A DNA stretch of 39,182 bases from Pseudomonadota bacterium. Lineage in GTDB: Bacteria > Pseudomonadota > Alphaproteobacteria > Caulobacterales > Caulobacteraceae. The DNA lies in NCBI GenBank assembly GCA_018241335.1, contig JAFEEA010000012.1, positions 1 through 39,182 on the forward strand, written 5' to 3'. The position numbers were made by a program, and so were the translations under genes. Positions 12,436-19,296 of the stretch are shown one piece after another (positions within the stretch are counted from its first letter, which is position 1; the number at the start of each line of letters is the position of its first letter). Under the pieces are notes generated by a model. That model saw nothing but the letters and a program-made list of their open reading frames with translations. It made no database searches and was not told where the DNA came from.

Positions 12436-12567
12436 GCCCTCTCCCCGCTCGCGGGGAGAGGGTTGGGTGAGGGGTCTCCGGGCCACGCGGAGCCTTTTCC
12501 GAGAGCGTGGCGTGGGCGGCGGCGCCCCTCACCCAACCCTCTCCCCTGCTGGCGCGGGGGAGAGGGC
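12436..12567. repeat. CCCTCTCCC-type composite inverted repeat
   Basis: The left half is a CCCTCTCCCC/GGGGAGAGGG hairpin followed by TTGGGTGAGGGG. The right half is its mirror image: CCCCTCACCCAA, then CCCTCTCCCC/GGGGGAGAGGG. The layout is the same as in the repeat between rpsP and rimM. It lies between the ends of the convergent folE and DUF817 genes, and its right half supplies the last codons of the DUF817 gene. Confidence 0.75.
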
Positions 12568-13443
12568 TAGCGCGACCGGCTCTCCCTCGGGCTCGCGCAC
12601 CCGGCTCACCATCGTCACCAGCACGAAGCTGAGGATCATCAGCAGGTACCAGGCGCCCATCTTGTCGATCGGCACCATGGCCCAGCCATGCTTCTGGCTG
12701 GGATAGGCCCAGGCGCCGGCGAAGGTGCCGAGGTTCTCGGCGAACCAGATGAAGAGGGCGACCAGGACGAGGCCGAGCAGCAGGGGCATGCGCCGGGGCG
12801 TCCGGTCCGGGGTGAAGACGATCCAGGTGCGCCGCCAGATCAGGGCGGAAAAGGCGAAGAGGCCCAGCCGGATGTCCGGCCACCAGTGGTGGGTGAAGAA
12901 GTTGGCGTAGCTGAGGACCGCCAGGGCCCACGGCGCCCAGGCCGGCGGCCAATGGGTGAAGCGGAACTCGAACAGCCGCCAGGCGCGGGCGATGTAGCTG
13001 CCGATGCAGGCGTACATGAAGCCCGAGAAAAGCGGCACGCCGCCGATGCGCAGGAAGTTGGGCTCCGGATATATCCACGAGCCGTGGGCGGTCTTGAACA
13101 CCTCCATGATGGTGCCGACGACGTGGAAGACGGCGATCACCGCCGCCTCCTCCCAGCGTTCCAGCCTGGTCGCCAGCATCAGCGCCTGGATGGCCAGGGC
13201 GGCCACCACCAGGAAGTCATAGCGCGCGATCGCCGCGTGGCCACCTAAGGTCTTTGGCCAGACAAGGTGCGTGCCCAGGATCAGGGCCAGCATCGCGCCG
13301 CCGAACAGGCAGGCCCAGGCCTGTTTCAGCCCGAACAGCAGGAATTCGTAGAGGCCGGCGTTGAGCCGCGAGCGCGACGCCCAGGGGCGCATGGCCCGGT
13401 CGAAGTCGCCGACCTTGCCCTTGATCCAGTCCTTCAGGCTCAA
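12529..13443 (-). CDS. DUF817-family integral membrane protein
   Basis: This protein of about 304 residues has about eight hydrophobic helices and the features of the uncharacterised DUF817 family: YEFLLFGLKQAWACLFGG, then FHVVGTIMEVFKTAHGSWIYPE, FSGFMYACIGSYIARAW and ANFFTHHWWPDIR. Conserved His, Glu and Trp residues sit in or near the helices, but no reaction is known. The start is uncertain. I chose TTG 13443 because it leaves 63 bases before hisI; ATG 13497 is also in frame but would put the two divergent starts 10 bases apart. The last dozen residues (ALSPAPAGERVG) are encoded by the adjacent inverted repeat, so they are probably an accretion. Confidence 0.8.
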   Translation of the reverse strand: MSLKDWIKGKVGDFDRAMRPWASRSRLNAGLYEFLLFGLKQAWACLFGGAMLALILGTHLVWPKTLGGHAAIARYDFLVVAALAIQALMLATRLERWEEAAVIAVFHVVGTIMEVFKTAHGSWIYPEPNFLRIGGVPLFSGFMYACIGSYIARAWRLFEFRFTHWPPAWAPWALAVLSYANFFTHHWWPDIRLGLFAFSALIWRRTWIVFTPDRTPRRMPLLLGLVLVALFIWFAENLGTFAGAWAYPSQKHGWAMVPIDKMGAWYLLMILSFVLVTMVSRVREPEGEPVALALSPAPAGERVG

Positions 13444-13506
13444 AGCGGCGCCCCCATTCGGGCATGAGGCTAGCGTGAGCCGGGCCAGCGGCGCCATATG
13501 CGGCCT

Positions 13507-13923
13507 ATGAGCGAGCCCCTGTTCCCGACCCTCGACGACCACGACGCCCTGGAGCGCGGCGCGGTCCTGGCCCCGCGTTTCGACGCCAACGGCCTGATGG
13601 CGGCTATCGTCCAGCATGCCGAGACCGGCGAGGTGCTGATGGTCGGCTGGATGAACGCGCAGGCGCTGAAGCTGACCCTCGACACCGGTTTCACCCACTT
13701 CTGGAGCCGCAAGCGCCAGGAGATCTGGAAGAAGGGCGACACCTCCGGCCAGCTGCTGCCGGTCGTCGAGCTGCGGCTCGACTGCGACCAGGACGCGTTG
13801 CTGGTGCGCACCGTGCCCGGCGGCGACGGCGGCGTCTGCCACGTGGCGGGGTTCCGGTCGTGCTTCTATCGCCGGGTCGAGGACGGGGCCCTGGCCGAGG
13901 CGCCGGGGAGCCGGCTGGCATGA
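13507..13923 (+). CDS. hisI: Phosphoribosyl-AMP cyclohydrolase
   Basis: This 138-residue enzyme catalyses the third step of histidine synthesis, opening the adenine ring of phosphoribosyl-AMP. Family motifs are LMVGWMNAQALKLTLDTG, FWSRKRQEIWKKGDTSGQ, the metal-binding LDCDQDALLVRTV and GVCHVAGFRSCFYRR. HisE is not fused. I chose ATG 13507 over 13498 on family length. The stop codon overlaps the next start (ATGA), coupling it to a LysE-type exporter. Other his genes are not in the window. Confidence 0.96.
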   Translation: MSEPLFPTLDDHDALERGAVLAPRFDANGLMAAIVQHAETGEVLMVGWMNAQALKLTLDTGFTHFWSRKRQEIWKKGDTSGQLLPVVELRLDCDQDALLVRTVPGGDGGVCHVAGFRSCFYRRVEDGALAEAPGSRLA

Positions 13924-14841: not shown

Positions 14842-16647
14842 TCAAACCTTCTTCGGCGCCGCGATCCCCGGCCCCTTGGTCGCCGCCACCGTCCAGGTGG
14901 AGGTCACCTCGGCCTTGTAGGGCTTGGCCGCCGTCTCGACCCCGATCAGTTCGGCGCGGGCCTCGGCGTGGGACAGGGTCAGGCGGATGTAGCCGCGGGT
15001 GACCTGGTCGCAATGCTTGACCTCGGGGTTCTGGGCCACGAACACCTCGCCGGCCTGGAAGCCGAAGTGGTCGCCCATGCCGGGGCTGGTGATGGCGCTG
15101 GTCCCGAACTCCACCGCCACCCGCGTCCCCGCCGCATCCGCCAGGTCGTTGACCCAGAAGGCGTGGCTGTCGCCGGACAGGACCAGGGTGTTGGCGCCGG
15201 GCGCGGACTTGATGGCGTCGTAGACCCGTTCGCGCGCGGCCGGATAGCCGTTCCAGGCGTCGAGGTCGTAGGGGGCGGGAATGCTCAGGGCGTCGAAGAC
15301 GCGCTCGATATAGGCCTTCTCCCTATCCGACTTGCCCGCCAGCAGCCGCGCATAACCGGCCGCGCCCAGGAAGCCACGGGCGTCCGGGTTCAGCATGCGG
15401 GCCATGACCACCTCGTTGCCGAGCACCTGCCAGGGCCGGCCGGCCTCGACCGAGGCGCGCAGCTCCGCCCCCAGCCAGGCCTCCTGGGCGGGGCCAAGCA
15501 TCTGGCGGGCGGGATCCTCGACATAGGCTTTCACGGCGACCAGGTCCGGACCGACGATGTAGGGCGCGGGCGGGCGGCCGTTCGCCGCCGCCATGGCCTC
15601 GCGCACCGTCTTGATCACGGCCGGATCGGTGACCTGGCGCGGGCGTCCGGGGCCGGAGGCGTCGAAGATCGCCTGGCCCACGTCGTCCGGCCGTTCGCGT
15701 TCCAGCTGGTACGAGCGAGCCATCAGCCGGCTCTCGACCATGATCAGGCTGGCCAGGTCGCCGAACTGGAAGCTGCGGTTGATGGCCTCGAAGGCCCGGC
15801 CCGGCTCCGGCTCGCGGATCGGCATCCACTCGTAGTAGGCCCTGAGCGCGGCCTGCTCACGCGCGCGCCAGTCGCCCTCGGTCTTGTCGTGGTGGTTCTC
15901 GGCCCCGCCGATCCAGTCGTCGTTGGCGACCTCGTGATCGTCCCAGACGCAGATCCAGGGCGCGCGGGCGTGGGCGGCCTGGAGGTCGGGGTCGCGCTTG
16001 TACTGGGCGTGGCGGGTCCGGTAGTCGGCCAGGGTGACGCAGTCGTGGGCCGGCTCATGCGCGCGGCCGAGCTTGTCGCCCATCTCCATGCCGTAGGAGC
16101 CGGGGCCGCCGTATTCGTAGATGTAGTCGCCCAGCTCGACCACGGCGTCGAGGCGGTCCAGGCCGGCGATGTGGTGATAGGCGTTGAACCAGCCCTGCGG
16201 ATAGAGCGAGCAGGTGACCACCGCCAGCACCAGGTCCGCCGTCGGCCCGCTGGGGAGGGTGCGCGCGCGACCGACCGCCGAGGTCGCGCCGCCGGTGCGG
16301 CCGCCCACGAGGAAGCGGTACCAGTAGTCCTGGCCGGGCTTCAGGCCCGTCACGTCGACCTTGACCGTGAAATCGCGCGGGGCGGCGGCCTGGGTCACGC
16401 CGCTGGCGGCGGGGCGGGCGAAGTCGGCGCTTTCGCTGACCTCCCAGCGCACGGGGATCGGCGCCGCGCCCTCGGCGGTCACCCGCGTCCAGATCACCAG
16501 CCGGTCGGCCAGGGGATCGCCGCTGGCGACGCCGTGCAGGAACCTGGCGTCCGCCGCCGCGACGGGCGCAACCTCGGCCGCGGCCTTCAGCGGCGCCGCC
16601 GCGCCCAGGCCCAACAGGGCCAGCGCCCCACGTCGATCGATCCTCAT
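14842..16647 (-). CDS. phoD: PhoD-type alkaline phosphatase/phosphodiesterase
   Basis: This 601-residue exported metalloenzyme hydrolyses phosphate mono- and diesters outside the cytoplasm. The N-terminus (MRIDRRGALALLGLGAAAP) looks like a Tat signal, as expected for PhoD, which folds with its metals before export. The PhoD N-terminal domain (FLHGVASGDPLADRLVIWTRVT) is followed by the catalytic metallophosphatase domain with VVTCSLYPQG, ELGDYIYEYG and WDDHEVANDDW, and a C-terminal SGDSHAFWVNDL and FGTSAITSPG. It diverges from the ferritin-like gene. I see no convincing Pho box. Confidence 0.92.
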   Translation of the reverse strand: MRIDRRGALALLGLGAAAPLKAAAEVAPVAAADARFLHGVASGDPLADRLVIWTRVTAEGAAPIPVRWEVSESADFARPAASGVTQAAAPRDFTVKVDVTGLKPGQDYWYRFLVGGRTGGATSAVGRARTLPSGPTADLVLAVVTCSLYPQGWFNAYHHIAGLDRLDAVVELGDYIYEYGGPGSYGMEMGDKLGRAHEPAHDCVTLADYRTRHAQYKRDPDLQAAHARAPWICVWDDHEVANDDWIGGAENHHDKTEGDWRAREQAALRAYYEWMPIREPEPGRAFEAINRSFQFGDLASLIMVESRLMARSYQLERERPDDVGQAIFDASGPGRPRQVTDPAVIKTVREAMAAANGRPPAPYIVGPDLVAVKAYVEDPARQMLGPAQEAWLGAELRASVEAGRPWQVLGNEVVMARMLNPDARGFLGAAGYARLLAGKSDREKAYIERVFDALSIPAPYDLDAWNGYPAARERVYDAIKSAPGANTLVLSGDSHAFWVNDLADAAGTRVAVEFGTSAITSPGMGDHFGFQAGEVFVAQNPEVKHCDQVTRGYIRLTLSHAEARAELIGVETAAKPYKAEVTSTWTVAATKGPGIAAPKKV

Positions 16648-16733
16648 GCGTCCTCCGGCTGCGCTCGTGCGTTATGGCCGCGCCACGACAACAACCGGGA
16701 CCTATGGTCCCATCGCATGACAGGAGCTTGACG

Positions 16734-17048
16734 ATGTCCAGCGAAGGCCTGCACGTCCCGCGTGAGAAGCTGCGGCGCGAGACCTTGAACCTGCACTACG
16801 CCATCACATCGCTGATCGAGGAGCTGGAAGCCGTCGACTGGTACCGCCAGCGCGCCGACGATTGCGACGACCCGGCCTTGCGGGCCATCCTGCTGCACAA
16901 CGCCGACGAGGAGGTCGAGCACGCCTCCATGGCCCTGGAGTGGATCCGCCGCCAGGACGCCCGCTTCGACAAGGAGCTGCGGGAATACCTGTTCACCGAG
17001 GGCTCGATCACCGGACGCGAGGAAGCGGCCATGGGCAAGGGCGCCTGA
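16734..17048 (+). CDS. Encapsulated-ferritin-type (EncFtn) ferroxidase homologue
   Basis: This 104-residue, mostly helical protein closely resembles the EncFtn family (Rru_A0973 type) normally packed inside encapsulin shells to oxidise and store iron. The segment EELEAVDWYRQR, then HNADEEVEHASMALEWIRR and LREYLFTEGSI are hallmarks. The expected iron ligands are kept with constant spacing: E30, E32, W36, Y37, E60 and H63, each about two residues before the R. rubrum positions as I recall them. ATG 16734 is preceded by AGGAG at seven bases. The protein ends GREEAAMGKGA, with no recognisable C-terminal encapsulin-targeting peptide, and no shell gene is within the window. It lies four bases before the pseudouridine synthase gene. 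Confidence 0.88.
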   Translation: MSSEGLHVPREKLRRETLNLHYAITSLIEELEAVDWYRQRADDCDDPALRAILLHNADEEVEHASMALEWIRRQDARFDKELREYLFTEGSITGREEAAMGKGA

Positions 17049-17052
17049 CGCC

Positions 17053-18090
17053 ATGACGGGCGGAACCGAGCTGACCGTGGCCCTGGACGACGACACCGAG
17101 GACGAGGGCCTGGCCGAGACCCTCGATCCCGGCGTGCGCGTGGTCGAACTGGACGCCGGCGGGCGGCTGGACAAGGCCCTGGCCGACAAGCTGCCGGAAC
17201 TGTCGCGCTCGCGCGTGCAGGCGCTGATGGCCCAGGGCGCGGTGACCCGCGACGACGTGGTCGTGGCCGATCCCTCCGCGCGTGCGATGGCCGGGCTCTA
17301 TCGCCTGCTGATCCCGGCCGCGGTCCCGGCCGAGCCCATGCCCGAGGCGATCCCGCTGAACGTCCTCTTCGAGGACCAGCACCTGATCGTGGTCGACAAG
17401 CCCGCCGGCATGGCCGCTCACCCGGCACCGGGAACCGAGAGCGGCACCCTGGTCAACGCCCTGCTGCACCATTGCGGCGCCAGCCTTTCGGGCATCGGCG
17501 GGGTGGCCCGGCCCGGGATCGTGCACCGCCTGGACAAGGACACCTCGGGCGTCATGGTCGCCGCCAAGACCGACGCCGCCCATCAGGGCCTGTCGGCCCT
17601 GTTCGCCGCCCACGACCTGGAGCGGACCTATGTGGCCCTGACCCGCGGCGCGCCCACGCCCGCCCAGGGGACGATCCGGACGCGGATCGGCCGCTCCGCC
17701 AACGATCGCAAGAAGATGGCGGTGCTGAAGGCCGGCGGGCGCGAGGCCGTCACCCACTATGTGACCGCCAGCGTCTTTGGCGCGGGCGGCAAGCCCGGCG
17801 CCCGGCCCCTGGCCGGCAAGGTCCGCTGCACCCTGGAAACCGGCCGCACCCACCAGATCCGCGTGCACCTGGCCTCCGTCGGCGCGCCCGTGCTGGGCGA
17901 CCCGCTCTACGGCGCCGGCTCGCCCGCCGCCCCGGTGAAGGCGGCGATCGCCGAGGCCGGGCTCGCGCGCCAGGCCCTGCACGCCGCCGTGCTCGGATTC
18001 CGCCACCCGATCACCGGCGAGGCCCTGCGCTTCGCGACCGCGCTTCCCGCCGACATGGCGGCCCTGGAGGCGCTGCTGGCGGGGCTGTGA
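17053..18090 (+). CDS. rluD: RluD-type 23S rRNA pseudouridine synthase
   Basis: This 345-residue RluA/RluD-family enzyme has an N-terminal S4 RNA-binding domain (residues about 25-90: GGRLDKALADKLPELSRSRVQALMAQGAV) and a catalytic domain with VLFEDQHLIVVDKPAGM, GIVHRLDKDTSG (catalytic D161) and LETGRTHQIRVHLASVG. The S4 domain and length favour RluD over RluA. The N-terminal 20 residues are acidic and unrelated to the fold. It starts four bases after the ferritin-like gene; the same order occurs, as far as I recall, just upstream of rpoH in Caulobacter relatives. Confidence 0.93.
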   Translation: MTGGTELTVALDDDTEDEGLAETLDPGVRVVELDAGGRLDKALADKLPELSRSRVQALMAQGAVTRDDVVVADPSARAMAGLYRLLIPAAVPAEPMPEAIPLNVLFEDQHLIVVDKPAGMAAHPAPGTESGTLVNALLHHCGASLSGIGGVARPGIVHRLDKDTSGVMVAAKTDAAHQGLSALFAAHDLERTYVALTRGAPTPAQGTIRTRIGRSANDRKKMAVLKAGGREAVTHYVTASVFGAGGKPGARPLAGKVRCTLETGRTHQIRVHLASVGAPVLGDPLYGAGSPAAPVKAAIAEAGLARQALHAAVLGFRHPITGEALRFATALPADMAALEALLAGL

Positions 18091-18328: not shown

Positions 18329-18402
18329 TGTCTTGTTGAAGGGGGTGGCGCCGGCGCGTGCGCGCGTTGCGACGACATTCCGAGTCAGAAGGGGAAAGTA
18401 CC

Positions 18403-19296
18403 ATGGCCAATGCAACCGCGCTCGCCGTCATGTCGCCGGAAGGCGGCCTCTCGCGCTATCTGACGGAGATCCGCAAGTTTCCGATGCTGGCCAAGGACGA
18501 GGAGTTCATGCTCGCCAAGGCCTGGAAGGAACACCAGGACCCGCAGGCGGCCCACCGTCTCGTCACCAGCCACCTGCGCCTCGTCGCCAAGATCGCCATG
18601 GGCTATCGCGGCTACGGCCTGCCCATCGGGGAAGTGATCTCCGAGGGCAACGTCGGCCTCATGCAGGCGGTCAAGAAGTTCGAGCCCGACAAGGGCTTCC
18701 GCCTGGCGACCTACGCCATGTGGTGGATCCGCGCCTCGATCCAGGAATACATCCTGCGCTCGTGGTCGCTGGTGAAGATGGGCACGACGGCGGCGCAGAA
18801 GAAGCTGTTCTTCAACCTGCGCAAGGCCAAGAGCGAGATCAGCGCCCTGGAAGAGGGCGACCTGCATCCCGAACACGTCCGCCAGATCGCCACCAAGCTG
18901 GGCGTGCTGGACGAGGAAGTCGTGTCCATGAACCGGCGCCTCTCCGGCGGCGGCGACGCCTCGCTGAACGCGCCTCTGCGCTCTGACAGCGAGAACGAGT
19001 GGCAGGACTGGCTGGAAGACAAGGACGCCGTCAGCCAGGAAACCAAGCTGGCCGAGGACGAGGAACAGTCGATCCGCATGAGCCTGCTCGAAGAGGCGAT
19101 GACGGAGCTGACCGACCGCGAGCGCCACATCCTGACCGAGCGCCGGCTGAAGGACGACCCCACCACCCTGGAGGAACTGGCCTCGCAATACGGCGTCAGC
19201 CGCGAGCGCGTGCGCCAGATCGAGGTGCGGGCGTTCGAGAAGCTGCAGAAGGCCATGCGCGCGGCCGCCACCGAGCGCAATCTCGTCGACGCCTGA
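18403..19296 (+). CDS. rpoH: RNA polymerase heat-shock sigma factor RpoH
   Basis: This 297-residue sigma-32 factor directs transcription of chaperone and protease genes. Region 2 is complete (HLRLVAKIAMGYRGYGLP, GFRLATYAMWWIRASIQEYIL), the RpoH box QKKLFFNLRKAK is present and identifies the subfamily, and region 4 ends with SRERVRQIEVRAFEKLQKAM. ATG 18403 follows GGGGAAAG; an in-frame start at 18358 is less likely because it adds residues foreign to the family. The upstream gap carries a candidate heat-shock promoter. A hairpin terminator follows directly and is shared with the convergent histidine phosphatase gene. Confidence 0.98.
   Translation: MANATALAVMSPEGGLSRYLTEIRKFPMLAKDEEFMLAKAWKEHQDPQAAHRLVTSHLRLVAKIAMGYRGYGLPIGEVISEGNVGLMQAVKKFEPDKGFRLATYAMWWIRASIQEYILRSWSLVKMGTTAAQKKLFFNLRKAKSEISALEEGDLHPEHVRQIATKLGVLDEEVVSMNRRLSGGGDASLNAPLRSDSENEWQDWLEDKDAVSQETKLAEDEEQSIRMSLLEEAMTELTDRERHILTERRLKDDPTTLEELASQYGVSRERVRQIEVRAFEKLQKAMRAAATERNLVDA

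What the first reader, a model, noticed from the sequence alone, without database searches (positions are those of the whole stretch)
16734..17048. EncFtn-type ferroxidase without a shell gene or targeting tail
The protein carries the full EncFtn core with all expected iron ligands at regular spacing (E30, E32, W36, Y37, E60, H63). Known members are encoded beside an encapsulin and carry a C-terminal targeting peptide. Here the gene lies between phoD and an rRNA pseudouridine synthase, the protein ends GREEAAMGKGA, and no encapsulin occurs within about 20 kb on either side. It may be a free-standing ferroxidase, or serve a distant shell.
Basis: partly seen in the sequence, partly recalled or inferred. 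Interest (0 to 1): 0.6.

Follow-up and report, generated by a model that had tools for sequence, protein, structure and literature searches.

The report
Shell-free encapsulated-ferritin-type iron oxidase
A small iron-oxidising protein of a kind usually described as cargo of a virus-like protein shell is here encoded in a bacterium with no detectable classical shell gene; this tailless form turns out to be common, and in the genomes sampled the docking tail appears only when a shell gene sits next door.

Summary
The ORF at 16734-17048 encodes a 104-aa EncFtn-family protein (Pfam PF22277, 131 bits; about 58% identical to solved R. rubrum and H. ochraceum EncFtn) with every iron ligand present and no targeting tail. 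The whole genome (99.6% complete) has no classical encapsulin.

Tailless EncFtns are already described as 'Non-EncFtn' (He 2016) or 's-FLP' (Eren 2024; PDB 3k6c). In a sample of 289 alphaproteobacterial genomes, 42 carry a strong EncFtn. Ten have a long C-terminal tail with a targeting peptide and an adjacent encapsulin. Thirty-two are tailless and have no encapsulin anywhere (Fisher p 7e-10, not corrected for kinship; at least 3 changes on the tree). In Caulobacteraceae 26 of 149 genomes have EncFtn and none has an encapsulin. None of 128 tailless proteins has a targeting motif, yet the ligands are essentially invariant.

So it is most likely a free-standing cytosolic ferroxidase ring, an ordinary member of an under-studied but known group. 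The survey argues against the putative s-FLP targeting peptide proposed in 2024. Where the oxidised iron goes is unknown; bacterioferritin presence is uncorrelated with it.

The parts
16734..17048 (+). Tailless EncFtn (s-FLP) gene, 104 aa
   Evidence: PF22277 131 bits; PDB homologues 7oe2, 5da5, 3k6c; all ligand positions present and near-invariant in 128 tailless relatives
16722..16726 (+). Shine-Dalgarno AGGAG, 7 nt before the ATG
   Evidence: Read from sequence; a similar ACAGGAG..TGA stretch precedes the start in many Caulobacteraceae orthologues
17053..18090 (+). RluA/RluD-family 23S rRNA pseudouridine synthase, 4 bp after the EncFtn stop, probably co-transcribed
   Evidence: PF00849 and TIGR00005; downstream in most Caulobacteraceae loci
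14842..16647 (-). PhoD-like alkaline phosphatase, divergent from EncFtn
   Evidence: PF09423 347 bits and PF16655; same arrangement in many but not all Caulobacteraceae loci
18358..19296 (+). Heat-shock sigma factor RpoH, next in the conserved order
   Evidence: TIGR02392 367 bits; synteny

Best explanation
The gene encodes a tailless member of the EncFtn family that works without an encapsulin. Inferred mechanism: two-helix monomers pair across a symmetric di-iron site (E30, E60, H63, Y37 from each subunit) and five such dimers close into a ring. Fe(II) enters through the central channel past E29/E32, is oxidised at the site, and Fe(III) leaves at the outer rim (H55, E59, E62). With no shell the ring cannot store a mineral itself. 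It most likely acts as a cytosolic ferroxidase that removes Fe(II) and its oxidant and passes Fe(III) to other sinks. Shown here: family membership, ligand conservation, absence of targeting motif, absence of classical shells, retention under purifying selection. Inferred from relatives: the ring and the ferroxidase activity. Unknown: the fate of the iron.
For: Own genome: 0 Linocin_M18 and a single EncFtn. Caulobacteraceae: EncFtn in 26 of 149 genomes, encapsulin over cut-off in 0 of 149. 0 of 50 genomes of close relatives have an encapsulin. Class sample: 10 tailed with adjacent encapsulin, 32 tailless with none, no exceptions (Fisher p 7e-10). Phylum sample adds 15 genomes: 1 tailed with adjacent shell, 12 tailless without shell, 2 tailless with a shell elsewhere that sits beside its own DyP cargo in the one examined. 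Targeting motif in 11 of 11 tailed and 0 of 128 tailless proteins; E29, E30, Y37, H55, E59, E60, E62, H63 invariant in 128 of 128. dN about 0.06-0.18 against dS 0.47-1.3. Absence is not an assembly gap: several tailless genomes are single-contig (G047, G226, G318, G394, G400, G678). The tailless homologue 3k6c forms decamers (PMC11202242), and EncFtn alone is a ferroxidase that cannot mineralise iron (PMC5012862).
Against: No activity or oligomeric state was measured for this protein, and I found no solution study of any tailless member. Iron caused EncFtn without a shell to aggregate in vitro (PMC5012862), so a naked ring may be awkward in the cell. Non-classical shells (families 2-4) are not excluded: the family-2 search found nothing here, but no control genome rang either. 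The Fisher test ignores kinship; on the tree there are only 3 independent contrasts.
Confidence: 0.7

Rival explanations
1. The tailless ring is an accessory that oxidises Fe(II) and hands Fe(III) to bacterioferritin, which is encoded elsewhere in this genome.
For: A true bacterioferritin (TIGR00754, 232 bits against a cut-off of 125.6) is present on another contig. A store is needed somewhere because EncFtn alone cannot mineralise iron (PMC5012862).
Against: Bfr is equally frequent with and without EncFtn in the family (18 of 26 against 86 of 123, p = 1.0). Four EncFtn genomes that are 99% complete or more lack a close Bfr homologue (G015, G030, G074, G093). Bfr has its own ferroxidase centre.
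Confidence: 0.2
2. The protein is cargo of an encapsulin elsewhere in the cell, docked by an unrecognised short C-terminal sequence, as the 2024 review suggests for s-FLPs (LFTD[E/N]KPIAHE).
For: The solved tailless protein forms decamers of the same shape as encapsulated ones, and fusion encapsulins show that an 8-residue linker is long enough (PMC11202242).
Against: No Linocin_M18 in the own genome, in 149 family genomes over cut-off, or in 50 genomes of close relatives. The genomes whose EncFtn ends in the very sequence proposed as a putative docking peptide also lack encapsulins. The extreme C-terminus is the most variable part of the tailless proteins.
Confidence: 0.04
3. The ring has moved to another metal or another oxidase or peroxidase chemistry, with iron oxidation incidental.
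For: Without a store, bulk iron oxidation has no obvious benefit. In a few other alphaproteobacteria the gene lies near a putative second ferritin-like gene and a glycine-rich, possibly membrane-bound protein (no Pfam match).
Against: Ferroxidase, entry and exit residues are identical to those of the encapsulated enzymes in essentially all 128 tailless proteins.
Confidence: 0.12

Closest known systems
s-FLP / Non-EncFtn, type protein NE0167 of Nitrosomonas europaea (PDB 3k6c)
   Same: 95-107 aa, EncFtn core with the same ligand positions, no targeting peptide; decamer in the crystal (PMC11202242)
   Different: The window protein is about 60% identical to NE0167-like proteins and has a longer, different C-terminus (GSITGREEAAMGKGA against KPIAHE); NE0167 itself carries L in place of W36
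Encapsulated ferritin of Rhodospirillum rubrum (Rru_A0973, PDB 5da5)
   Same: Core about 58% identical, identical ferroxidase, entry and exit residues (PMC5012862)
   Different: The R. rubrum protein is 140 aa with an SLGIGSLK targeting peptide and is housed in an encapsulin; neither feature is found here
Haliangium ochraceum EncFtn (PDB 5n5f, 7oe2)
   Same: Best PDB hit, E 4e-34 over residues 1-101
   Different: Tailed and encapsulated
Bacterioferritin (TIGR00754)
   Same: Ferritin-superfamily di-iron oxidase in the same genome
   Different: Four helices per chain and a 24-mer cage that stores iron; EncFtn has two main helices per chain and no cage

Membership tests
EncFtn-like family (PF22277) | Profile match over full core | tested here: met
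   131.3 bits, profile positions 2-85 of 85
EncFtn-like family (PF22277) | Ferroxidase ligands E32, Y39, E62, H65 (Rru numbering) and entry site E31/E34 | tested here: met
   E30, Y37, E60, H63, E29, E32 present and conserved in relatives
EncFtn-like family (PF22277) | D5 decamer with ferroxidase centre at the dimer interface | not testable with these tools
   Inferred from about 58% identity to solved decamers
Encapsulin-associated EncFtn (TIGR04535, FLP-TP) | Score over curated cut-off | tested here: not met
   122.2 against 125 bits; the cut-off does not cleanly separate the classes, since an NE0167-like tailless protein scores 137
Encapsulin-associated EncFtn (TIGR04535, FLP-TP) | C-terminal targeting peptide [LF]x[VI]xx[LIM] | tested here: not met
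   Absent here and in all 128 tailless proteins; present in 11 of 11 tailed
Encapsulin-associated EncFtn (TIGR04535, FLP-TP) | Encapsulin shell gene adjacent or in the genome | tested here: not met
   No PF04454 match in the genome; controls rang
s-FLP / Non-EncFtn | EncFtn core of about 95-107 aa without long disordered tail or targeting peptide | tested here: met
   104 aa; definition from PMC11202242
Family 2 encapsulin system (SrpI-like) | PF19307 shell gene in the genome | tested here: inconclusive
   No match, but no control genome rang

The most novel reading that the evidence does not exclude
Shell-free EncFtn rings are the main form of this family in Alphaproteobacteria and do something other than iron storage; association with a shell is an evolutionary add-on gained or lost at least three times, each time together with the tail, including an apparent regain (family f35: GLTIGRM tail plus adjacent encapsulin) inside the tailless clade.
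Probability: 0.45. Interest if true: 0.5.

Novelty: new member of a known kind. Interest (0 to 1): 0.35.

Why it matters
The family is named and annotated as encapsulin cargo (NCBIfam calls it 'encapsulin-associated'), yet in the alphaproteobacterial sample most members have no classical shell to go into. The strict pairing of tail with shell gene bears on a question the 2024 review left open (whether s-FLPs carry an undefined docking sequence), gives annotators a simple rule, and singles out a widespread ferroxidase ring whose iron has no known destination.

Tried and rejected
Distant-shell hypothesis: rejected by whole-genome searches. The six weak PF04454 matches in Caulobacteraceae genus g15 (20 bits, below cut-off, 39 residues inside a roughly 740-residue open frame) were treated as spurious; those genomes have no EncFtn. 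EncFtn replacing or accompanying bacterioferritin: no association (p = 1.0). Operon partner as a clue to function: outside Caulobacteraceae the rluD/phoD context is lost; the largest recurrent 'neighbour' clusters were antisense or shadow frames, and only small clusters of real-looking genes remained. Iron-responsive promoter box: none obvious by eye in upstream sequences, not tested statistically. One clade for all tailed proteins: supported branches force three changes, but the AU test does not formally reject one clade (p 0.079), and the core has only 92 columns. The dN/dS values for L010 and L086 are meaningless because their start was set out of register. Structure prediction was not run: a monomer model would add little to a 58%-identical solved structure.

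Full report
WHAT IS THERE. The ORF 16734-17048 (+) encodes a 104-residue protein preceded by AGGAG seven bases before the ATG. Pfam places it in EncFtn-like PF22277 with 131 bits. NCBIfam's 'encapsulin-associated ferritin-like protein' scores 122.2 bits, just under its 125-bit cut-off. Solved homologues are H. ochraceum EncFtn (7oe2, 5n5f), R. rubrum EncFtn (5da5 and mutants) and N. europaea NE0167 (3k6c). The weak rubrerythrin hit (19.8 bits, below cut-off) does not compete.

SURROUNDINGS. phoD is divergent (86 bp between start codons); an RluA-family pseudouridine synthase starts 4 bp after the stop, then rpoH. The order hisI - (lysE) - (phoD) - EncFtn - rluD - rpoH recurs across many Caulobacteraceae loci, with phoD missing in some, so this is a settled chromosomal gene. 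The order is lost outside the family. Among Caulobacteraceae genomes sampled, 26 of 149 have EncFtn, all tailless. Comparison with several near orthologues gives dN 0.06-0.18 and dS 0.47-1.3, i.e. purifying selection.

IS THERE A SHELL? The own genome (4.4 Mb, 458 contigs, 99.6% complete) has no Linocin_M18 match, while three control genomes rang. No Caulobacteraceae genome of 149 has one over cut-off, nor any of 50 genomes holding close EncFtn relatives. In 289 alphaproteobacterial genomes, 42 have a strong EncFtn (over 120 bits) and 10 have an encapsulin. All 10 encapsulin genomes carry an EncFtn next to an encapsulin gene, and those ten proteins are 126-138 aa with LGIGSL, LRIGSL or LTIGRM near the C-terminus. 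The other 32 are 95-105 aa with no such motif and no encapsulin anywhere (Fisher p 7e-10, which ignores kinship). Extending to the phylum gave 15 further genomes: one tailed with an adjacent shell (G740), 12 tailless without a shell, and two of a divergent group (f162, about 40% identical) that are tailless while their genome has an encapsulin at a distant place. In G526 that encapsulin is preceded by a DyP peroxidase-like gene carrying its own DGSLGIGSLKK tail (identified by sequence pattern and recall, not by a profile search), so that shell has its own cargo. Two other genomes of the same genus code have the tailless protein and no shell. Several shell-less genomes are single contigs, so absence is not an assembly gap.

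TREE. With 92 core columns, supported branches force at least three changes between tailed-with-shell and tailless-without-shell, and tail and shell change together each time. The f35 proteins (L136, L137, L149; LTIGRM tail) fall inside the tailless clade, which suggests a regain. This is not proven: the AU test of a single tailed clade gives p 0.079, and three independent contrasts are too few for a sign test.

RETAINED CHEMISTRY. In 128 tailless proteins E29, E30, D35, Y37, H55, E59, E60, E62 and H63 are invariant, E32 is present in 126 and W36 in 127. None has the targeting consensus, against 11 of 11 tailed proteins. The last seven residues are the most variable part (mean entropy 2.2 bits against 0.45 for residues 25-45). 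A conserved hidden docking peptide is therefore unlikely.

HOW IT PROBABLY WORKS. By homology it is a decameric ring with a symmetric di-iron centre at the dimer interface. He et al. (PMC5012862) showed for R. rubrum that EncFtn alone is a ferroxidase but cannot mineralise iron and aggregates when iron is added. A shell-free ring should therefore oxidise Fe(II) and pass Fe(III) on, or act in detoxification. The genome also has a true bacterioferritin (TIGR00754) and a rubrerythrin. Bacterioferritin is equally common with and without EncFtn in the family (18 of 26 against 86 of 123), so neither replacement nor obligatory hand-off is supported.

WHAT IS KNOWN. He et al. 2016 already had a 'Non-EncFtn' group lacking the encapsulin sequence. 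Eren et al. 2024 (PMC11202242) call the short class s-FLP, note the decameric structure 3k6c, list a putative and uncharacterised targeting peptide LFTD(E/N)KPIAHE, and leave encapsulation open. Proteins ending in that sequence were met here repeatedly; one example scores 167 bits (E 8.5e-49) to 3k6c. The genomes carrying them in the class and phylum samples have no encapsulin, which argues against that proposal. I found no paper in the held library that reports the genome-wide pairing of tail and shell, but most subscription papers are not in it.

VERDICT. Observation confirmed, interpretation half right: a genuine EncFtn, shell-free, but a member of a known and common tailless class rather than an anomaly.

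Noticed in passing
L136, L137, L149 (genus code g56): Tailed EncFtn with GLTIGRMKKRR and adjacent encapsulin nested among tailless proteins in the tree; possible regain of tail and shell.
   Followed up: partly
L180-L183 (genus code g252): Divergent tailless EncFtn, about 40% identical to the window protein; two of four genomes also carry a distant encapsulin, which in G526 lies just downstream of a DyP-like gene with its own targeting tail (L188 5840-7784).
   Followed up: partly
L191 4605-6471 and L148 (both genome G263): One genome with two classical encapsulins, one beside a DyP-like gene and one beside a tailed EncFtn, each cargo with a GSLGIGSL tail.
   Followed up: partly
L054, L127, L109 and L060/L118, within about 1.5 kb of EncFtn: Tailless EncFtn near a putative second ferritin-like gene (EALEDEYKARATYxKVIExFGPIRPFINIVEAEDRH) and/or a glycine-rich, possibly membrane protein; neither has a Pfam match.
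   Followed up: partly
L171 (NE0167-like tailless EncFtn), scored with NCBIfam TIGR04535: The 'encapsulin-associated' model passes a tailless NE0167-like protein (137 bits) while rejecting other tailless ones (122), so automatic names will mislead.
   Followed up: yes
window 12529-13842 (-): DUF817 protein of unknown function near folE and hisI.
   Followed up: no
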